The position numbers were made by a program, and so were the translations under genes. The notes beneath the pieces were generated by a model. The model was given only the letters and a program-made list of their open reading frames with translations, had not been told where the DNA came from and ran no database searches. This document shows positions 52,823 through 62,050 of a stretch of 64,000 nucleotides of DNA, one piece after another. The DNA is from Sulfurimonas sp. HSL3-7. GTDB lineage: Bacteria > Campylobacterota > Campylobacteria > Campylobacterales > Sulfurimonadaceae. The stretch spans positions 2,294,001-2,358,000 of the forward strand of contig NZ_CP147919.1 in assembly GCF_039645985.1 (NCBI RefSeq), given 5' to 3'. Numbering within the stretch: position 1 is the first letter of the stretch; each line of letters opens with the position of its first letter.

Positions 52823-55800
52823 TTACTGTTGCATTGCTGTCAAACCGGTAAAGTCCACTACTTGCAATATGTTTTTACTCCCTACCAACATGAAAGAGCT
52901 GTTAGGAATCTGTGCAAATGTTGTCACAGGACTCCTCAATATCTTCTCTCCTAATATAATCTCTCTTCTATCTGCAGAAATACTCAACAGACCAAGCAAA
53001 TAGTCTCCGCCAAACAATAAAGAGCTGTTATCTGATAGCAGTTGCATATGATTGATACTGAAGTAACTCTCTCCATCTTCATAATTGGAATCATTATACG
53101 AAGCAAGCTCGTTTCGATTAACATCATTAATTATGAGTCCCGCCGAGTCACCACCACCATAGTACATACTCTTATTGTCTTCATCAAATATCAATTCTTT
53201 TATATTAGCTGGAAACTCAACGACTTGTGTCGCATCTTCAATACTTTCTTGACTCATTGTTGAAAGTGCGAAGAAGTCTTGAATGTTGACGCGTGTAACA
53301 TATTGAGGTAAAGATTCATATCGTTTATGCATCTCAATGTCTGCATAAGCCCCATCCTCTGAAAACTTAATACTCGTGATCTCTCTTTGAGGATCTTCAA
53401 ACAACTCTATCTCAGAGACAAGAACACTCACGTTTACTATAACTGTAGCCGTCTCTGATTGTCCGTATCGATTTGAGGCATCGACGCTAAGTGAAAATGT
53501 TGGTGTACTAAAGTGATGCAGTTCAATCCCTCCGGAGAAAGTGATCTCTCCACTTTTGTTCACCTGAAAATATTCAGCACCATCACCATTCAGAGAGATA
53601 GCCTCTATACTGTTAGCATCATCAACGCCAAGGTCTAAACTACCTACTACCGTGCCAGCACTGCTCATGCTGTTAATCGAACCTTTAAAGTCTGCGATTA
53701 CCGGCACACTGTGAACACTAATGGTAGCGTTTACCTCCCGCGTGCCAATAGTGTTAGAAACATTTATCTGCAGTTGGTACAAAGCCGGGCCGGAGAACAG
53801 CGATGACACGGTACGAACAGTACCCGCACTGTCTATACTAAACTTCTCTGCGCCCTCGCCTGCCAATGAAAAGCCGGTGATTCCGCTGCCGCTATATACG
53901 ACTTCGACCTGCCCGACGACGGTATTAATGGACGCATCTGCTTCTACAGTTGCTTTGAACGGCAATATGCCAGGTACTTTTTCCTGATGCTCAAACCCAC
54001 CAACATTGACAAGGTGAATTCCGGAGTTTCCGGATGCTACTATAGCTTGATCAGTATTCCCCAACAATGCTACATCTTTGATGCCGCCAGGAACCGCTAT
54101 CGAACCTAGCAGTTGCAAGGCCGTGACATCGGCAACATCGACAACATGCAGTTGTGATCCGCCAAGATAGAGGTAGTTATTACCATAAGAAAGAGTTGTT
54201 ATCGGCTCAGGAAGTATAAGACTCGAAATCAGTTCAGGTCGCATTATATCTTGAAGATTGTACAACTTCAAAAGCGATTGTCCTTCTGGCGTGTGACCCG
54301 TTACGAATAAATAGCGATTGTCCTTCGATAGTGTCATTTTCGCATCATAAGGTGCTAGTATCGTACTGGTTATATTTATAATGGAAAGATCACCGATGTC
54401 ATAAATATCAATATTTTCGTAATTACCAGAAACGAACATATACTTTTCATCCGATGAAACAACGACACCCCGCCTGTTCTGTGTATAAACCTCATACAAT
54501 GAACCCAATGTCCCATTGTCTTCAATTTTTAGGATATCGATATAGTCATAGGTACCGACAAACACCATGTTTTTCAACGGTAGTATTTCTATAAAATTAA
54601 AATAATTCTCTATGCTGTAAGTATCCAGATAAAGAGGTGATACGGAGGGCTCCGTATCAAAAAGTTCCATTTTCTTATAGCTTCCTACTACAAGATTTGA
54701 GCCGGCTTCATTGATGGCAATACCGGAAACTCGCCCATAGTTACCAGATGTTCTGCCGACAAAAGAGAGTTTGTCTTTTTGTGAAAAGTCGACAATAGCG
54801 GCACCATAATAGTTGTTATCAGCCACATAGGCGACACTGCTGTTTTTGTCGATTGCCAACTCTACCGCATTGTCTACAGTATCAAGTGTCGCGACGATGC
54901 GATCTTGCACTTCTATCTCCAACAATGCCAAACTCTCTCCGTTGACTACAATGCTAAGATCGTAAAACGCTTGTTCACTCGCATTTAGCAGGGTATCATT
55001 TGCTACGAACAGCGCACCTTCTTTGGTGATATTGAAGTCTTCGCTTCCGAGGCCGCTAAGCGCAATAGTGGCAATTTGAGTGCCGTTTTCTTTAATTTTC
55101 AACCGGCCTATCTTTGTACCCCCGACCAAACCGTCGAGCAAGGTTAGGTCCAAGGAATCGACGGTCGGCGTCCTTTTAAGTTTTACTGCAATATTGATTG
55201 GCAAGCTACTGCCATGAGCATTGGTTGCTATAGCACTTAACTGGTATAAATTTTTTGAGAAGTAATTTAACTCCACACCATCCCTAAGATATACCATGCC
55301 ATCTAAATCAATCCTAAACGTTGTGTTATCATCCAGAACGACTTTGCTGATTGGGGCGTCTCCAGGTGTGCCCATCTTTAAGAATGCGACGAGAGAACCG
55401 GCACTTATATTATCGTCGACAACGACTTCAACACTTTCGGCTTCAGGTGCGTCGAGTACATTTTCAACAACAACCATAAATTTTGATTCTGATGTATACT
55501 CTTGTGAATTTACACAAAGTGTTAAGTCGTATACCTTTTGTCGTTCAAAATCTATTGCTGCTCCATCTTTAAATCCCACAAAACCCGTTGAGTTTATCTC
55601 AAACAACTCACTGCCATCTCCGCTTAAACTGAAGCGAGCTTCTCCCTCAGGCAAACCAACATCAAGTTTCAAGCCAAAATCACGCAAGATGCTATCTTCG
55701 CCTACAGAAACGACATATTGCAGCAAAATAGATTCGTATACGATTTTATACGCATCTGCATAGATATCTTGACCATGATAGATTTTTTGCGCAACAGGTT

Positions 55801-57724
55801 CATAATACTCAGAATAACTCTTTCTTAGCATTCTCTTATCATATCGGGGCATCCAATTGATAAGGTCGGTATACCCAATTTCATCAGAACTAGAGATCAG
55901 CAGTTTTTTTGCGACCTCATCAAGTCGGGAACTTATGATTGAGCTATCATTGTCATTTGCAAAGAGTTCCTTTGTAACCTGGTACGCAATTTCGGTCAGT
56001 ATGTTGATCTTAAAGTGACTGGTTTTTAAAAAACTTCCTTTATACAGACCATGCAAATCACCTGTTTTCACAGTCGGTCTTATGTCTATAACACCGTCAT
56101 CATCCGTGTCCACATCTACACCACCCATAACATTTACAAGATAATATCTGTCATCCTCAAGCGTATTCAATATCTCTTGTGAAAGCAAGATGACACCTGT
56201 TGAGCCAAGCGAGCTTCCAAGGGTAGTACTGGTTTCATGAAGTATGGCACCATTTGTCACATCAATTATGGAGACATTGGCTCCGCCGATGGGGCCCATA
56301 TTCGCGGTATTTAGCTTCGATTTCACGTCAAAAACCAGACTATCATGATCATCTGAATTATTTTCAGTTTGATTCGTCACCACTCCACCGTCACCTGTCG
56401 AAGCTTCCGGGTAACATATTTCTAAACCTTCTTCATAACTTAATTGATCAGAAACCCAACAGCCTCCCACTCCTACAGTTTGATGTTGACCACCTCCACT
56501 ACTGGAAACAACTTCGTCCGTCGAATCGCTTCCTATAGGAATAATGTTTTTAAAATGACTAGTTATTAATTGTAATCCGCTTCTATTAACGTCTTCATTT
56601 GCTAAAACACTTATCATGCTGTTTGCTTTGACTTCTATATCGGCTATATGGCCCAGATCTAACAAATCGCTTGTCGATATGTCGACATCGATAGTCAATG
56701 CATCATTCGGTGTTTTTACTGCCAAACGAACAGATTGGGGAAGGTTTTCTTCATCTACCTTTCCACTATGGTTGACATAAATACCGTAAGTGCCTTCTGC
56801 GACATCATCAATAGACTCTACATAATAACGACTGTCAGCAGCACATCCTACTCTTCTCTCTTTTTGGCCCAGCTCTGATGAGAGTTGCAACTGTATATCA
56901 CTGCTTTGCCATGAAAGTTGAATGTCTATTGGGTACTCTTTGCGTTCTACTGGCGGATAAACAGTATTAAAATAATTCATCGCATACTCTGGAAAGGATG
57001 CTATTTTGTCTTGTGTAACCACATTGCTATAGCGGTAATAATCAAAATAGTGATATGTTGGAAGTTTAAAACTATAGCCCTCAATAATAAATTTATCACT
57101 ATTTATTATATTTTGGCTCATGCTCGATGGTACGAATGTTATTGGATCATTATCTAATGTTGCCAAAGCTCCTCTCCCATCACTCATACCGCTCACATGA
57201 TCGGCAGGGTTCGCGGTTCCTAGCATGTAAAATGACTTTTTTTGACACTCGCTCAGTGTATCATACGCTTCGTTTGTAAAGAAATTACCCTGCGAGTGGG
57301 CAATGACGATGACTTGGTTTCCGGCATTGATACTTTTTTTATAGTTACTGATCTGCTCTGTCAGGTCGTTAGAGTGAGTACTGCTAAGTCCTGTAAAATA
57401 ATCGATATAATAATCGGCTAAAGCCTTATCGGCATCGGAAAGAAACGAGAGCCAATACTTACTCCAACCGTTCTGCTCGAAAAGCTGTGACGCGCCTTCG
57501 ATAAAATCCCAGAAACCGCGGCTAGTGTTGTAGGCCGATTTAAAAGGCTCGCTACTGTAGATTTCGGGATTGGAGGCTTTTAGGTCTTCTTCTAGTAAAT
57601 CGCGAGCTTCATCTGTATCTTTTTTATCTGTTAAAACTCCCGTAGCAAGATAGATATCTGCTTTGGCATGAAGAGAGCTTATGCCAAAAAAACAAAAAAT
57701 AAAAACAAGGAGATGCTTTTTCAT
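52823..57724 (-). CDS. Exported 1633-residue alpha/beta-hydrolase with cadherin-like and beta-propeller modules (hydrolase A)
   Basis: Positions below count from an in-frame ATG two codons further upstream (57730). The chosen start, ATG 57724, overlaps the lipoprotein stop (ATGA) and has AGGGG upstream. Signal peptide to about 22 (ISSLHA). Hydrolase-like domain (about 24-262) with nucleophile motif VIAHSQGN (S146) and candidate Asp (D193/D195, TLDNDP) and His (H227, PTYHYFD). Then an unassigned beta region, a module with VDTDDDGVIDIRPTV (about 500-700), cadherin-like repeats with LSGDGSELFEI pattern, an LVIVD/NHL-like propeller (about 960-1290), two more cadherin-like repeats, and a C-terminal propeller-like part. 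Likely surface or secreted. No LPxTG or clear secretion tail seen. Partner is lipoprotein A, translated by coupling. Confidence 0.85.
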   Translation of the reverse strand: MKKHLLVFIFCFFGISSLHAKADIYLATGVLTDKKDTDEARDLLEEDLKASNPEIYSSEPFKSAYNTSRGFWDFIEGASQLFEQNGWSKYWLSFLSDADKALADYYIDYFTGLSSTHSNDLTEQISNYKKSINAGNQVIVIAHSQGNFFTNEAYDTLSECQKKSFYMLGTANPADHVSGMSDGRGALATLDNDPITFVPSSMSQNIINSDKFIIEGYSFKLPTYHYFDYYRYSNVVTQDKIASFPEYAMNYFNTVYPPVERKEYPIDIQLSWQSSDIQLQLSSELGQKERRVGCAADSRYYVESIDDVAEGTYGIYVNHSGKVDEENLPQSVRLAVKTPNDALTIDVDISTSDLLDLGHIADIEVKANSMISVLANEDVNRSGLQLITSHFKNIIPIGSDSTDEVVSSSGGGQHQTVGVGGCWVSDQLSYEEGLEICYPEASTGDGGVVTNQTENNSDDHDSLVFDVKSKLNTANMGPIGGANVSIIDVTNGAILHETSTTLGSSLGSTGVILLSQEILNTLEDDRYYLVNVMGGVDVDTDDDGVIDIRPTVKTGDLHGLYKGSFLKTSHFKINILTEIAYQVTKELFANDNDSSIISSRLDEVAKKLLISSSDEIGYTDLINWMPRYDKRMLRKSYSEYYEPVAQKIYHGQDIYADAYKIVYESILLQYVVSVGEDSILRDFGLKLDVGLPEGEARFSLSGDGSELFEINSTGFVGFKDGAAIDFERQKVYDLTLCVNSQEYTSESKFMVVVENVLDAPEAESVEVVVDDNISAGSLVAFLKMGTPGDAPISKVVLDDNTTFRIDLDGMVYLRDGVELNYFSKNLYQLSAIATNAHGSSLPINIAVKLKRTPTVDSLDLTLLDGLVGGTKIGRLKIKENGTQIATIALSGLGSEDFNITKEGALFVANDTLLNASEQAFYDLSIVVNGESLALLEIEVQDRIVATLDTVDNAVELAIDKNSSVAYVADNNYYGAAIVDFSQKDKLSFVGRTSGNYGRVSGIAINEAGSNLVVGSYKKMELFDTEPSVSPLYLDTYSIENYFNFIEILPLKNMVFVGTYDYIDILKIEDNGTLGSLYEVYTQNRRGVVVSSDEKYMFVSGNYENIDIYDIGDLSIINITSTILAPYDAKMTLSKDNRYLFVTGHTPEGQSLLKLYNLQDIMRPELISSLILPEPITTLSYGNNYLYLGGSQLHVVDVADVTALQLLGSIAVPGGIKDVALLGNTDQAIVASGNSGIHLVNVGGFEHQEKVPGILPFKATVEADASINTVVGQVEVVYSGSGITGFSLAGEGAEKFSIDSAGTVRTVSSLFSGPALYQLQINVSNTIGTREVNATISVHSVPVIADFKGSINSMSSAGTVVGSLDLGVDDANSIEAISLNGDGAEYFQVNKSGEITFSGGIELHHFSTPTFSLSVDASNRYGQSETATVIVNVSVLVSEIELFEDPQREITSIKFSEDGAYADIEMHKRYESLPQYVTRVNIQDFFALSTMSQESIEDATQVVEFPANIKELIFDEDNKSMYYGGGDSAGLIINDVNRNELASYNDSNYEDGESYFSINHMQLLSDNSSLLFGGDYLLGLLSISADRREIILGEKILRSPVTTFAQIPNSSFMLVGSKNILQVVDFTGLTAMQQ

Positions 57725-58839
57725 TCCCATTCCCCCTGAAGAATCTTCGTTTCGTTAAAATCACATCTAGTTTTATGAGTATTTCTATCTCTACCTGGAT
57801 ATACTCCTCCGCTTAATGCTTGATTATATTCATAATAGGCACGATTGCGCTCTCTTGTATTTAAAATGAGTGGTCTTGACTCTTTATAAAGACTTTTTCC
57901 TCTTGGAATAAGTTTTTTTGAATCTTGATGCATATAGTAAGATTGACAATCCGTTTGATTTTCCATCAATTTATCAGTCTCCCTCGCCTTAGAAGGATCC
58001 ACAAGTATTATCTGAAAGGCTCTGGCATTCTGCATAGCAACCGCTTGTACTATCGGGTGATCGTACTCTGCAAATATCCATCGCTCTACATCATCTCTCA
58101 CCCCGTTGTTGTTTGAGTCTATTCCAAGAAGTGTAGAGTTGTTTATGGTTTCATCCGGTTCAGGCGGAAGCTTGTGTCCGTTTATCTCTTTGTAAATCTC
58201 TAAAGCAAGAGAGTTTGAAGTTACTGTGTTTAGTTTTGCTTGGAGGATTATGTTTGTATCTTTCATGGCATGTAAAGATCTTTGAGTGATTTGTGCTGCG
58301 TTTGTGTCGGAGAGGTTCCACTCAACTTCTTCTGTTACATCTTTTGTGGTGTTGTCTTGGTAGGTAGCTATGACTTTGAGTGTTGTGTTTTCATCTACGT
58401 TGAGTGAGTTTTTTTCTACCGTGAGTTTGAGAGATTTCAGGCTAGGAGTAGCCCCTTGTTCCACCTCTGGCGAGGTCGTATCAGCCTCATTCACTTCTAC
58501 AACCTTAGGAAGCACCGTAACATGAACCTGCTTTTTAACTGTAATATTCGTCGTCTCCAACTGTGCCGTAACCGCTTCAAGCTCAAAGACTAAACTCTCT
58601 TGTGTCGTAACACCCGGAGCTATAAAACTAGCCGTGCTTGTATTTGCATTCACAAGGATGACGGAAGTCCCGCTTAACTGGCTCCAACTATAAGCCTTTG
58701 ACCCACTGGCATGTAACTCTACCGTATCATCTGAGTATGCTGTAAGATTAGTATCAACTTGAAGTATTTCTTTGTCAGAGCTACATGCCAAGAAAAAAGT
58801 TGCTGTTAAAAGTGCTAAAAAGAGGTGAAGAAGTTTCAT
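57721..58839 (-). CDS. Lipoprotein A with PKD-like, Big2-like and C-terminal repeat-family domain
   Basis: 372 residues. Type II signal, lipobox FFLAC (C19). An Ig/PKD-like domain (about 28-115: VELHASGSKAYSWSQLSG), a Big2-like domain (about 130-215: LKLTVEKNSLNVDENTTLKV), then a C-terminal module of about 150 residues shared with lipoproteins B and C: NGHKLPPEPDETINNSTLLG, an EF-hand-like DSNNNGVRDDVE loop, and two conserved Cys (QTDCQSYY, RCDFNETKI). Likely on the outer membrane, bound to its hydrolase. Stop overlaps the hydrolase start by four bases; ribosome site AAAGGACTC before the ATG. Confidence 0.85.
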   Translation of the reverse strand: MKLLHLFLALLTATFFLACSSDKEILQVDTNLTAYSDDTVELHASGSKAYSWSQLSGTSVILVNANTSTASFIAPGVTTQESLVFELEAVTAQLETTNITVKKQVHVTVLPKVVEVNEADTTSPEVEQGATPSLKSLKLTVEKNSLNVDENTTLKVIATYQDNTTKDVTEEVEWNLSDTNAAQITQRSLHAMKDTNIILQAKLNTVTSNSLALEIYKEINGHKLPPEPDETINNSTLLGIDSNNNGVRDDVERWIFAEYDHPIVQAVAMQNARAFQIILVDPSKARETDKLMENQTDCQSYYMHQDSKKLIPRGKSLYKESRPLILNTRERNRAYYEYNQALSGGVYPGRDRNTHKTRCDFNETKILQGEWE

Positions 58840-58923
58840 GAAAGAGTCCTTTTTAATGGTGTTTTTTGTTGTTTTATATCATAGCTTGTTTGAACATGCG
58901 TTAAAGTTAAAGTTTGTTCTATT

Positions 58924-59289
58924 TTAAGTTTTTTTTGTAGTTCCTAGCATGCAAACTGCCTTTTGTTCACATGGGCTTAGTGCATCATACGCCTCATTTG
59001 TAAAGTAGTTTCCCTGTGAGTGGGCAATTACGATTACTTGGTTACCCGCATTGATGCTATTTTTATAATTTTTTATCTGCTCGGTCAGGTCGTTGGTATG
59101 ATTATTGCTAAGTCCTGCAAAATAATCTATGTAATGTTTTTCCAAAACTTGATCAGTCGCAATAACAAAAGAGTTCCAATACATACTCCAGCCGTTCTGT
59201 TCGAAAAGCTGAGCTGCAGCTTCGATGAAGTCCCAAAGATCGTGCTTAGTGTTGTAGGCAGCTTTAAAATCTTGACTACCGAAGGACAA
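58924..59289 (-). pseudogene. Truncated hydrolase B
   Basis: About 120 codons closely matching residues 60-175 of hydrolase A: AAYNTKHDLWDFIEAAAQLF, LSNNHTNDLTEQIKNYKNSI and VIVIAHSQGNYFTNEAYD with the nucleophile kept. The signal peptide and first ~60 residues are missing where the RAYT element sits, and the frame ends in a poly-A run (LGTTKKT then stop) where hydrolase A reads LGTANPADH. The long modular C-terminal part is absent. The only start is a TTG inside the flanking repeat. Not functional. Confidence 0.85.
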
Positions 59290-59331
59290 GGGGTCAGGTG
59301 ATACCTAAGGACAAGGGGTCAGGTGATACCT
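59282..59331. repeat. 25-bp tandem direct repeat at the left end of the RAYT element
   Basis: Two perfect 25-base units (59282-59306 and 59307-59331), each AAGGACA plus AGGGGTCAGGTGATACCT. The inner copy, extended to 59335, is the inverted partner of the right end at 60120-60141. REP-like structure. Confidence 0.93.
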
Positions 59332-60098
59332 ATACCTCTCACTTTTTTTATTACTCTATTTATTTGTGGTTGAGATAATTCTAGACACTCGGCTATAGCA
59401 TGTTGAGAGTACCCTGCTTCATATGCTTTTAAAATCTTATGATCTCTGTCTGCCTGATCCTTGACCTGTTGGAACCTGTGTTTTAAGCTCTTGCTATCAA
59501 GCTTTTTCTCTTTTATGGATGTGACAACAAGGGTGGATGCTTTTTGGATCTCTTCTAATATTCTCTCATCAACACCACATTCAAAAAACTCTACCCTATC
59601 TTTTCGATCTGTAAACTTTTCAAATACAAATGAACATTTTAAACACCCAATAGGTTCTCTCTGCTCAACAAATGACAGATATGAACTATATTCATATTTG
59701 CCCAATGCCTTGACCATCTTCGCCTTGACAGGGTTGTTCTCTATATAGCTTATCAACGTATAAAGATAAGCTTCATCCGTCACATACCAGGACTTAAACC
59801 GCCCTTGCCAGAGGTGGCCTGAACGCTTATATTTTTTATTGAAATAGATAGCATAAGAAGCATTAAGATGTTTCATGAACTTTGAAAGATTCTCTTTTCT
59901 CGTCTCAATCAGCAAATGGTAATGGTTGCTCATCAACACATACCCATGCAATTGAACATCATAAAGCTGACACCCACTACAGAGCAGCTCCAAAAACATT
60001 GTATAGTCATCTTTAACTTTATAGACTATGCGCTGCTCTACCCCTCTATTGACGATATGATAGTACCCAACCATATCAACCCTCGGTCGTCTTGGCAT
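59319..60098 (-). CDS. REP-associated tyrosine transposase (Y1_Tnp, HUH)
   Basis: 259 residues. Starts PRRPRVDMVGYYHIVNRGVE. HUH metal/nicking motif HYH in LMSNHYHLLIET; nucleophile Tyr in SYIENNPVKAKMV; conserved KRSGHLWQGRFKSW. A C-terminal helix-turn-helix (AIAECLELSQPQINRVIKKV) is an extra DNA-binding part found in some RAYTs. Intact frame. RAYTs mobilise REP/BIME sequences; whether this one is active is unknown. Confidence 0.93.
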   Translation of the reverse strand: MPRRPRVDMVGYYHIVNRGVEQRIVYKVKDDYTMFLELLCSGCQLYDVQLHGYVLMSNHYHLLIETRKENLSKFMKHLNASYAIYFNKKYKRSGHLWQGRFKSWYVTDEAYLYTLISYIENNPVKAKMVKALGKYEYSSYLSFVEQREPIGCLKCSFVFEKFTDRKDRVEFFECGVDERILEEIQKASTLVVTSIKEKKLDSKSLKHRFQQVKDQADRDHKILKAYEAGYSQHAIAECLELSQPQINRVIKKVRGIGIT

Positions 60099-60128
60099 CT
60101 CCTCTCCTTTTATAGCATAGTATAGGTA

Positions 60129-60731
60129 TCACCTGACCCCTAATTTTTGAAGATCCATAATTTTACTTACATTAAAATCGCATGAACCTTTCTCGTCTGA
60201 AATACTAGGAAGTGTTGTAATCCCGCCGCTAAAAAATGCATCGAAATTCTTATACGCAACTTGTCGCTCTTGTGTATTTAGTACTATTCTTTCATATGCA
60301 CGATCCAAAATAAATTCATCTACTAATATTGAATCTCCAAATCGTTTCGCATCAAATTGAAAATAAAACTCACAATTTTGTGCAGCATCCAAAAGTTTTG
60401 ATGTCTCACTTGCCTTACTTGGATTTTCTAAAACTTTCTGCCACGCACGACCGGCTTGCATCGCAATCTCAGTATAAATAGGATGTTTGTCTTTATACTT
60501 TTTAAGTATCCAAATCTCGACATCATCTCTCACACCATTGTTATTGCTATCGATACCTAACAGTGTGGAGTTATTGATCGCTGGATCAGGTGCTGGCGGC
60601 AAGGTATAACCGTGAATCACTTCAACAGTTTCATTTTTGCTTGTTGAGTACCCGTCGCTCTGGCTGCATCCACTCATGAAGATCGATGTAAGTAACAGTG
60701 TTATTGCAAGTAAATTACTATGTGTTATCAT
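60129..60731 (-). CDS. Lipoprotein B (shared C-terminal module)
   Basis: 200 residues. Type II signal, lipobox IFMSGC (C22). A short linker replaces the PKD/Big2 domains of lipoprotein A, then the shared module: LPPAPDPAINNSTLLGIDSN, DSNNNGVRDDVE, conserved Cys in AQNCEFYF and GSCDFNVSKI. The middle is divergent from A and C. The last four residues (LGVR) and stop come from the RAYT end, so the native tail was replaced. Ribosome site AGGAAAA before ATG. Likely still makes a protein. Confidence 0.82.
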   Translation of the reverse strand: MITHSNLLAITLLLTSIFMSGCSQSDGYSTSKNETVEVIHGYTLPPAPDPAINNSTLLGIDSNNNGVRDDVEIWILKKYKDKHPIYTEIAMQAGRAWQKVLENPSKASETSKLLDAAQNCEFYFQFDAKRFGDSILVDEFILDRAYERIVLNTQERQVAYKNFDAFFSGGITTLPSISDEKGSCDFNVSKIMDLQKLGVR

Positions 60732-60837
60732 ATTTTTTCCTATTTTTTTATGTATTAAGTATGTTGTCCAAACTATTCTTAAGGAAACTGTATTATGTTA
60801 CTGGTATCAACTGTAATTTTACAAATAAGCAATCACA

Positions 60838-61085
60838 ATCTCTTGGTACCCGCATTGATGCTATTTTTATAATTTTTTATCTAAGTAATCTTGTATTAGC
60901 AATTGCTTCAAATTCCTCTGTATCTATACCATTGGCAAAATATACATCAATCTTTCGTTCATCAATAATTGTGTCTAAAGGACTATTGGGGACAGGCTAC
61001 TTTTACTATTGGGGACAGGCATATGTCTTGGTGAAGCATGCAGTGTAAGCGTCAAGAATAATATGACAAAAACTATTTTACTCAT
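60838..61085 (-). pseudogene. Decayed hydrolase C
   Basis: Starts with an ATG (61085) overlapping the lipoprotein C stop by eight bases and encodes a signal peptide (MSKIVFVILFLTLTLHA). The frame then runs into a REP-like double repeat and a stop. Beyond it, in another frame, RKIDVYFANGIDTEEFEAIA matches hydrolase A's ADIYLATGVLTD region. After a deletion, 35 bases (60848-60882) are identical to hydrolase B 59044-59078 (the KNYKNSINAG region), with one base lost just after. Several lesions; not functional. Confidence 0.8.
60982..61020. repeat. REP-like direct repeat in hydrolase C
   Basis: ACTATTGGGGACAGGC occurs at 60982-60997 and 61005-61020, separated by TACTTTT (23-base period). It interrupts the decayed hydrolase right after its signal-peptide region. 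The look (GGGGACAGG core) resembles ends of another RAYT family, different from the AGGGGTCAGG ends at 59.3/60.1 kb. Confidence 0.85.
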
Positions 61086-61713
61086 CGTCTTCATCATCTA
61101 TTATGATTGCCCGAGTAACATTAAAGTCGCAAGAACTTTCTACTTTATAACTTTTAGGAGTCCAATATACTCCGCCGCTTAAAGCTTGATTATACTTTAT
61201 GTATTTTTCAACTCTTGCTCTTGTGTTAAATACATAATCTTCGGCAGATAAGCTGTAGAGATCTATTCCATGCTCATGAAAAATATATGAGATACATCCA
61301 ATATCATATTTATCGAGTTTTTCCCATTTCGTGGCATTTTCAATGAGATCATCGGCTTCTAAACGTTTTTGTTGCTGTCGAGCAGACATCATCAAAGACT
61401 GTCTTTCTATCTCCAACTCATGTTCGAGATAAATCTTCCGTTCCACATCGTCGCGAACGCCATTTTTATTGACATCGACGCCGGCAAGGGTAAAATTGTT
61501 GATTGCTGGGTCCGGTTCAGGCGGCAGTACGTGACCGTTAATGACTAGCGGCACGTCAGCAGTTGTATTGTCGTCTGGGTTTTGAGCAGTTGTGTTATTA
61601 TCATATTCTTCATAGGGCTCAATTTCTGATGTGGAACGCTGTCCACTCGTTGAATACCCATTACTCTGACTGCATCCGCTAATGAAGATAGATGCAAGAA
61701 TAACTGCTATCAC
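61078..61713 (-). CDS. Lipoprotein C, ancestral start frameshifted
   Basis: 211 codons from a GTG at 61713; lipobox IFISGC (C14), Asp/Asn/Thr-rich linker (about 35-65), then the shared module: GHVLPPEPDPAINNFTLAG, DVNKNGVRDDVE, conserved Cys in YDIGCISYI and SSCDFNVTRAI. Middle region differs strongly from A and B. The homologous ATG at 61734 (same AGGAAAAAAT leader as lipoprotein B) is followed at once by TAA because one base is missing. From the GTG the signal would lack its positive N-region, so export may fail. Possibly a pseudogene. Confidence 0.65.
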   Translation of the reverse strand: MIAVILASIFISGCSQSNGYSTSGQRSTSEIEPYEEYDNNTTAQNPDDNTTADVPLVINGHVLPPEPDPAINNFTLAGVDVNKNGVRDDVERKIYLEHELEIERQSLMMSARQQQKRLEADDLIENATKWEKLDKYDIGCISYIFHEHGIDLYSLSAEDYVFNTRARVEKYIKYNQALSGGVYWTPKSYKVESSCDFNVTRAIIIDDEDDE

Positions 61714-61801
61714 TATTTGGCTTTTTTGTTACATATTTTTTCCTGTTCTTTTATGATTTTTAATGGTAGCAAAGTAATTCTTAAAGCATATACAATCAGC
61801 C

Positions 61802-62050
61802 TGGTTTTCCTCCAGCGGTTATAGTTATGATGAAGACGGCTACCTGAAAACCAAGAGCACGACAGCAGGCACAAGCAGTTACAACTATGGAAGCTTGGGC
61901 GAACTCAAAGAGGTCTCCCTGCCTAATGGCGACATCATCACCTACAAGCAGACCGCCGACAACCAGAGAGTCGCCAAGCTGAAAAACGGTGAGGGAGAAG
62001 AGCTGGCCGGTGGTTTTATATTAGAACATACTTTTGCAGCATCACTTTGA
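61802..62050 (+). pseudogene. RHS/YD-repeat remnant
   Basis: Plus-strand frame without a start codon: YSYDEDGYLKTKSTTAGTSS, then YNYGSLGELKEVSLPNGDII, then TYKQTADNQRVAKLKNGEGE. These are typical YD repeats of RHS proteins. The fragment is GC-richer than the AT-rich island around it and ends by running into the 3' end of the WbqC-like gene (stop 62048-62050). No N-terminal domain or toxin tip. Remnant of an RHS or wall-associated polymorphic-toxin gene. Confidence 0.8.

What the first reader, a model, noticed from the sequence alone, without database searches (positions are those of the whole stretch)
52823..61734. Triplicated lipoprotein-hydrolase gene pair with conserved translational coupling
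Seen: three copies of a lipoprotein with a shared C-terminal module (NGHxLPPEPD, DxNNNGVRDDVE, two Cys), each followed by an exported hydrolase with the AHSQGN motif or its remains. The stop/start overlap is four bases in copy A and eight in copy C, so the pairing is old. The lipoprotein cores differ strongly between conserved ends while the hydrolase N-terminal domains are close. Only one hydrolase is intact. Inference: effector plus cognate protector or docking lipoprotein, with spare lipoproteins kept as in effector/immunity arrays, or a surface enzyme with its anchor.
Basis: partly seen in the sequence, partly recalled or inferred. Interest (0 to 1): 0.76.

Follow-up and report, generated by a model that had tools for sequence, protein, structure and literature searches.

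The report
Exported hydrolase with dedicated lipoprotein partner
Next to a gene for an exported cutinase-like enzyme sits a gene for a small envelope protein that this enzyme is never found without; the two-gene set (sometimes fused into one gene) turns up, so far nameless, in four bacterial phyla and on plasmids, and the partner is often kept after the enzyme is lost, which suggests that it restrains or matures the enzyme.

Summary
There are three copies of an exported, mostly lipobox-bearing protein (LP), but only copy A has an intact hydrolase (HY). The HY fragment after LP-B is A-type, cut off from LP-B by an inserted Y1 transposase. The fragment after LP-C is a mosaic, and LP-C's own ATG is followed by a stop codon. 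The pairing itself is confirmed. In Campylobacterota every intact HY has an intact LP directly upstream, usually overlapping or 1-3 nt away. LP and HY distances correlate (r=0.66, 0 of 5000 permutations). The same pair lies on plasmids of beta- and gammaproteobacteria and is fused in one reading frame in three Deinococcus plasmids (and, frame-broken, in a Nitrospirota one). HY models as a cutinase-fold serine hydrolase. LP models as a confident helical domain with a Ca-loop-like motif and no PDB match. Neither matches Pfam, NCBIfam, PADLOC or PHROGs. The link is one-sided: of 104 intact LPs, 33 sit beside a truncated HY and 29 beside none. Such LPs, including some in genomes without HY, remain under purifying selection. 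Best reading: LP is a trans-acting pro-domain (inhibitor/immunity, perhaps also foldase) for an exported hydrolase. No binding, inhibition or enzyme activity has been shown.

The parts
52823..57724 (-). HY-A: exported cutinase-fold serine hydrolase with signal peptide, catalytic domain at the N-terminus, then long cadherin/repeat region (1633 aa from the ATG at 57724; 1635 aa from 57730)
   Evidence: ATG overlaps the LP-A stop by 4 nt
56960..57724 (-). HY-A catalytic domain (about residues 1-255); Ser in AHSQGN is residue 144 (57293-57295), acid D193, His in the HYF motif
   Evidence: alignments; model; fold comparison
57721..58839 (-). LP-A: lipobox signal, PKD/Ig-like stalk, C-terminal LP module
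57745..58185 (-). LP module of LP-A (residues about 219-365): helical domain, invariant D-x-N-x-N-x-x-R-D-D-V-E loop and two Cys
58084..58119 (-). Ca-loop-like motif DSNNNGVRDDVE of LP-A (residues 241-252)
   Evidence: invariant columns; calcium binding itself is inferred from the motif
58938..59283 (-). HY fragment 'B': internal part of an A-type HY with AHSQGN, N- and C-terminus missing
59319..60098 (-). Y1 (REP-associated tyrosine-type) transposase gene inserted between LP-B and the HY fragment
   Evidence: flanking 16-nt copies at 59290, 59315 and 60125
60129..60731 (-). LP-B: short lipoprotein with intact module, no intact HY of its own
60847..61085 (-). HY remnant 'C': signal peptide (ATG at 61085 overlaps the LP-C stop by 8 nt), repeat scar, IDERKIDVYFANG piece, 36 nt shared with fragment B
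   Evidence: (E 2.7e-8)
61078..61713 (-). LP-C: intact module; native ATG at 61734 is followed by TAA, only a GTG start remains

Best explanation
LP and HY form one exported two-part system. HY is secreted through Sec and folds as a cutinase/lipase-type alpha/beta hydrolase, usually with a Ser-Asp-His triad. LP is made just before HY, apparently from the same message, is exported to the envelope (often lipid-anchored), and binds the HY catalytic domain as a trans-acting pro-domain that keeps it inactive until it has left the cell or met its target, possibly helping it to fold. Extra and orphan LPs would be kept because they neutralise HY enzymes of relatives (orphan immunity). Shown here: adjacency, order, start/stop overlap, fusion, co-divergence, predicted fold of HY, one-sided decay, purifying selection on orphan LPs. 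Inferred: direct binding, inhibition, substrate, target, calcium binding and export route.
For: HY-first searches: every intact HY has an intact LP immediately upstream (class sample: strong HY hits in 9 of 298 genomes, all among the 21 LP genomes and adjacent). Pooled: 86 of 87 HY reading frames follow an LP, gaps mostly -4 to +3 nt. Same pair on plasmids of Methylibium, Paraburkholderia, Cupriavidus, Comamonas, Aeromonas, Photobacterium and Vibrio; fused in one frame in three Deinococcus plasmids and, frame-broken, in Nitrospirota. LP/HY distance correlation r=0.655, 0/5000 permutations. One-sided decay: 104 intact LPs have 42 full, 33 truncated and 29 absent HYs; no full HY with a broken LP. 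In arrays holding a full HY, it follows the last complete LP; spare LPs lie upstream. Orphan LPs have dN/dS 0.14-0.50, paired ones 0.25-0.38; complete genomes G016 and G047 have LPs but no HY. HY fold: VIA Z about 14 to cutinases.
Against: No binding, inhibition or enzyme assay exists. HY has its own signal peptide and no known delivery machinery, unlike known injected effectors. LP is fused to HY in Deinococcus, which is odd for an immunity protein and fits a foldase or pro-domain better. The LP module is more conserved (mean identity 40%) than HY (29%), unlike typical fast-evolving immunity proteins. Six of 44 HYs have lost the Ser nucleophile. HY is longer than LP, so some of the excess decay could be target size; dN/dS between paralogues is a crude measure.
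Confidence: 0.45

Rival explanations
1. LP is a dedicated foldase and/or envelope anchor for HY (works like the lipase-specific foldase Lif): it helps the exported hydrolase fold or holds it at the membrane, with no inhibitory role.
For: LP-HY fusions with LP in the propeptide position; strict LP-first order and coupling; HY never without LP; many LPs have a lipobox and long stalks. Lif is a membrane-based steric chaperone likened to propeptides (PMC3352829).
Against: LPs persist under purifying selection without HY, even in complete genomes lacking HY; spare LPs in arrays; somewhat under half of the LPs seem to lack a lipid anchor; no sequence match to known foldases.
Confidence: 0.3
2. LP has an independent envelope function (scaffold, adhesion or inhibition of foreign hydrolases), and HY is an optional cargo that some lineages dock onto it.
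For: LP is commoner than HY (21 versus 9 of 298 genomes), better conserved and selected alone.
Against: Exclusive adjacency of HY to LP, co-divergence and fusions show a specific relation; many lone LPs still carry HY remnants next to them, so loss is common.
Confidence: 0.15
3. Ordinary tandem duplication and decay of a surface-protein gene with no functional link between the two products.
For: The window copies are decaying, with a transposase insertion and a lost start codon.
Against: Conservation of the two-gene unit across four phyla, fusion, co-divergence and selection.
Confidence: 0.04

Closest known systems
Lipase and lipase-specific foldase (LipA-Lif/LipH)
   Same: Exported alpha/beta hydrolase paired with a dedicated envelope-bound periplasmic partner; adjacent genes; steric chaperones are functionally akin to propeptides (PMC3352829)
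   Different: LP is unrelated by sequence, has a different motif set (Ca-loop-like, two Cys), precedes the enzyme gene, occurs alone under selection and in arrays; HY has no Pfam lipase match
Type VI lipase effectors with periplasmic immunity proteins (Tle/Tli, e.g. V. cholerae TseL modules with orphan immunity genes, PMC7702109)
   Same: Lipase-fold enzyme, exported partner, rows of spare partner genes left after effector loss, mobile and patchy distribution
   Different: HY carries its own Sec signal peptide; no injection machinery was seen in what was examined (not searched systematically); LP comes first; orphans lie upstream; LP-HY fusions exist
Fungal and bacterial cutinases/lipases
   Same: Fold of the HY catalytic domain (VIA Z about 14, 170 residues, 3-4 A), Ser-His-Asp triad
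   Different: About 10% identity, no Pfam match, encoded with LP, giant C-terminal repeats in some members

Membership tests
Alpha/beta hydrolase, cutinase/lipase fold | Fold | tested here: met
   Model m9519178826eb matches cutinases at VIA Z 13-14.7 over 160-178 residues
Alpha/beta hydrolase, cutinase/lipase fold | Ser nucleophile elbow plus Asp and His | tested here: met
   HSQG, D193 and H in HY-A; Ser present in 38 of 44 intact HYs; six have Gly or Ala there
Named lipase/cutinase families of Pfam or NCBIfam | Profile match above cut-off | tested here: not met
   No match of the HY domain
Lipase-specific foldase (Lif) | Sequence family of the chaperone | tested here: not met
   No Pfam or NCBIfam match of LP
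Lipase-specific foldase (Lif) | Enzyme needs the partner to fold | not testable with these tools
   needs expression with and without LP
Type VI lipase effector/immunity (Tle/Tli) | Effector without Sec signal, delivered by a type VI apparatus | tested here: not met
   Intact HYs begin with a hydrophobic signal-like stretch (model helix 2-16); neighbourhood of T6SS genes was not systematically tested
Type VI lipase effector/immunity (Tle/Tli) | Partner neutralises the enzyme | not testable with these tools
   genomic pattern only
Polymorphic toxin (CDI/Rhs) | Toxin domain at the C-terminus of a large delivery protein | tested here: not met
   HY domain is N-terminal, right after the signal peptide
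Known anti-phage defence systems | PADLOC profile match | tested here: not met
   no match of LP or HY
EF-hand/TSP3-like calcium loop (LP) | D-x-N-x-N-G-x-x-D-x-x-E loop | tested here: met
   its D, N, N, D and E positions are invariant and its G is nearly invariant in 85 sequences; calcium binding not testable

The most novel reading that the evidence does not exclude
LP defines a new, probably calcium-dependent helical protein family that acts in trans as a pro-domain inhibitor of exported cutinase-fold hydrolases. Together they form a mobile Sec-exported toxin-immunity (or zymogen-like) system of several phyla, with orphan LP arrays as a record of past encounters.
Probability: 0.33. Interest if true: 0.75.

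Novelty: new variant of a known kind. Interest (0 to 1): 0.6.

Why it matters
Two protein families that none of the curated libraries searched here describes turn out to form one linked module in Campylobacterota, Pseudomonadota plasmids, Deinococcota and Nitrospirota. This gives a function-linked grouping to many 'hypothetical proteins' on environmental and clinical plasmids, and a testable case of how an exported hydrolase is held in check or matured by a partner that outlives it. The natural fusions make the interaction directly testable by structure prediction and by one-tube biochemistry.

Tried and rejected
Pfam, NCBIfam, PADLOC and PHROGs with LP and HY: nothing relevant. PHROG hits concern only the extra C-terminal domain of the proteobacterial and D. 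aetherius HYs. PDB by sequence profile: no relative. LP model against PDB: Foldseek best E 4.7, VIA Z at most 3.6, only the usual helical noise; this does not prove a new fold. Phase variation of HY by homopolymers: rejected; truncations are mostly deletions, few 8-mers. Phage carriage: no LP in viral contigs; the phage hits listed touch only the C-terminal domain. The window HY-A domain finds nothing on plasmids by tblastn; the link to plasmid HYs comes through profiles and LP. My lipobox regular expression under-counts (one search lists some clear lipoboxes as absent). One apparent case of full HY with broken LP (L173) was an ORF-start artefact. One search's Fisher test kept it as broken and is therefore conservative. 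The literature searches found nothing on this pair.

Full report
What is in the window. On the - strand between 62.0 and 52.8 kb lie, in order of transcription, LP-C (61078-61713), a HY remnant, LP-B (60129-60731), a Y1 transposase gene (59319-60098), a HY fragment (about 58938-59283), LP-A (57721-58839) and the intact HY-A (52823-57724). HY-A starts inside the LP-A stop (ATGA). LP-C ends in ATGAGTAA, where a second HY frame starts, but that frame dies after about 36 codons. The HY piece after LP-B is 69% identical to HY-A and is cut off from LP-B by the transposase. LP-B's closest relatives elsewhere carry another HY type. LP-C's original ATG is followed at once by TAA. The window therefore shows one live pair and the debris of others, not three parallel pairs.

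The pair is real and old. A HY-first search of 100 related genomes found HY in 15 of them; each intact HY has an intact LP immediately upstream, and one hit without an LP lies at a contig end. In an even sample of 298 genomes of the class, LP occurs in 21 and strong HY hits in 9; all nine are LP genomes and the genes are neighbours (two further weak partial HY hits, E 1e-5 and 9e-4, are in genomes without an LP hit and are probably chance). Over all collected loci 86 of 87 HY frames follow an LP, mostly with gaps of -4 to +3 nt. LP and HY distances among 44 intact pairs correlate at r=0.655, never reached in 5000 permutations.

It crosses phyla. tblastn against plasmids with LP gave Methylibium, Vibrio and Paraburkholderia besides Sulfurovum. 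From there HY and LP searches gave Cupriavidus, Comamonas, Aeromonas, Photobacterium, Vibrio, Acinetobacter (LP only), Thiomicrorhabdus (LP only), Deinococcus and the Nitrospirota Candidatus Manganitrophus. Profiles built only from Campylobacterota recognise most of these LPs at E 1e-9 to 1e-24 and most HYs at 1e-11 to 1e-21; two fused Deinococcus LP parts and a few fragments score weaker, and the Manganitrophus LP is only marginal (0.0096). Every full plasmid HY examined has LP directly upstream, or LP and HY lie in one reading frame: Deinococcus aetherius, Deinococcus sp. D7000 and Deinococcus sp. QL22. In Manganitrophus the fused frame is broken inside HY. Nearly all are annotated 'hypothetical protein', or misnamed 'ParA' in Photobacterium and Vibrio.

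What the parts are. The HY catalytic domain models well (core pLDDT above 90) and matches cutinases (VIA Z about 14). The invariant or near-invariant residues include H, Q and G of the HSQG elbow and the acid D193; six of 44 HYs have Gly or Ala in place of the Ser. The C-terminal parts vary greatly in length (HYs from about 180 to over 2000 residues), with cadherin and beta-propeller repeats in Campylobacterota. The LP module models at pLDDT 94.9 as a helical domain, with a conserved D-x-N-x-N-G-x-R-D-D-V-E loop and two invariant Cys. It has no PDB match by fold or sequence. Neither has a Pfam, NCBIfam, PADLOC or PHROG family. At least 59 of 108 LPs have a lipobox and the rest mostly a plain signal peptide, so export, not lipidation, is the shared feature.

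Who depends on whom. Of 104 intact Campylobacterota LPs away from contig ends, 42 have a full HY, 33 a truncated or remnant HY and 29 none. No full HY has a broken LP. In arrays with a full HY, that HY follows the last complete LP and the spare LPs lie upstream, as tandem duplication of LP plus the start of HY would give. The same one-sided decay recurs on Photobacterium and Aeromonas plasmids. Lone LPs are not decaying: dN/dS 0.14-0.50, like paired LPs, and complete genomes with LPs but no HY exist (G016 with four LPs, G047). HYs are also under purifying selection (dN/dS 0.08-0.37), except a pair lacking the Ser (0.61).

Interpretation. HY needs LP; LP does not need HY next to it. LP made first, spare LPs kept, patchy and plasmid-borne distribution and HY decay all fit a toxin-immunity logic, like the orphan immunity genes beside V. 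cholerae lipase modules (PMC7702109). LP fused in the propeptide position, strict order and good LP conservation fit a pro-domain or foldase logic, like Lif, classed with propeptide steric chaperones (PMC3352829). A trans-acting pro-domain that both binds and restrains HY covers most observations; I give it 0.45. The step from genomics to binding and inhibition is inference.

Limits. The LP-first locus set is biased toward intact LPs; the HY-first and class-wide searches are the unbiased controls. HY is longer than LP, so part of the excess decay may be target size; selection on orphan LPs is the stronger argument. Many loci come from metagenome-assembled genomes. The plasmid collection samples few phyla, and the whole-genome scan was limited to one, so true breadth is unknown.

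Noticed in passing
window 61817-62014 (+): Remnant of an Rhs/YD-repeat protein (GYSYDEDGYLKTKSTTAGTSSYNYGSLGELKEVSLPNGDIITYKQTADNQRVAKLKNG), the only copy found in the genome, on the opposite strand just upstream of the LP array.
   Followed up: partly
window 59290-60140: Y1 (REP-associated tyrosine) transposase gene with 16-nt GGTATCACCTGACCCC copies on both sides, one side doubled; a different 15-nt repeat CCTGTCCCCAATAGT, doubled, sits in HY remnant C and may mark a second such element.
   Followed up: partly
L097 6886-7514 (own genome G000:C1:2486888-2487345) and L069: Another LP copy lies beside the ribosomal protein genes rpsM/rpsK in two genomes of the genus: broken in the window's genome, LP intact with truncated HY in G007.
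   Followed up: no
L182 4365-6125, L184 5911-7215, L186 4464-6185: Several proteobacterial HYs and the D. aetherius fusion share a C-terminal domain (GDxDLHxxEPxGxHVFY-like) that also occurs in large phages of Klebsiella, Serratia and Erwinia.
   Followed up: no
L188, L195 (Photobacterium and Vibrio plasmids): LP genes are annotated 'chromosome partitioning protein ParA', evidently a propagated misannotation.
   Followed up: no
L088, L089, L092, L138, L139, L152: HYs whose nucleophile Ser is Gly or Ala although the rest of the elbow and the LP partner are kept: possible pseudoenzymes.
   Followed up: partly
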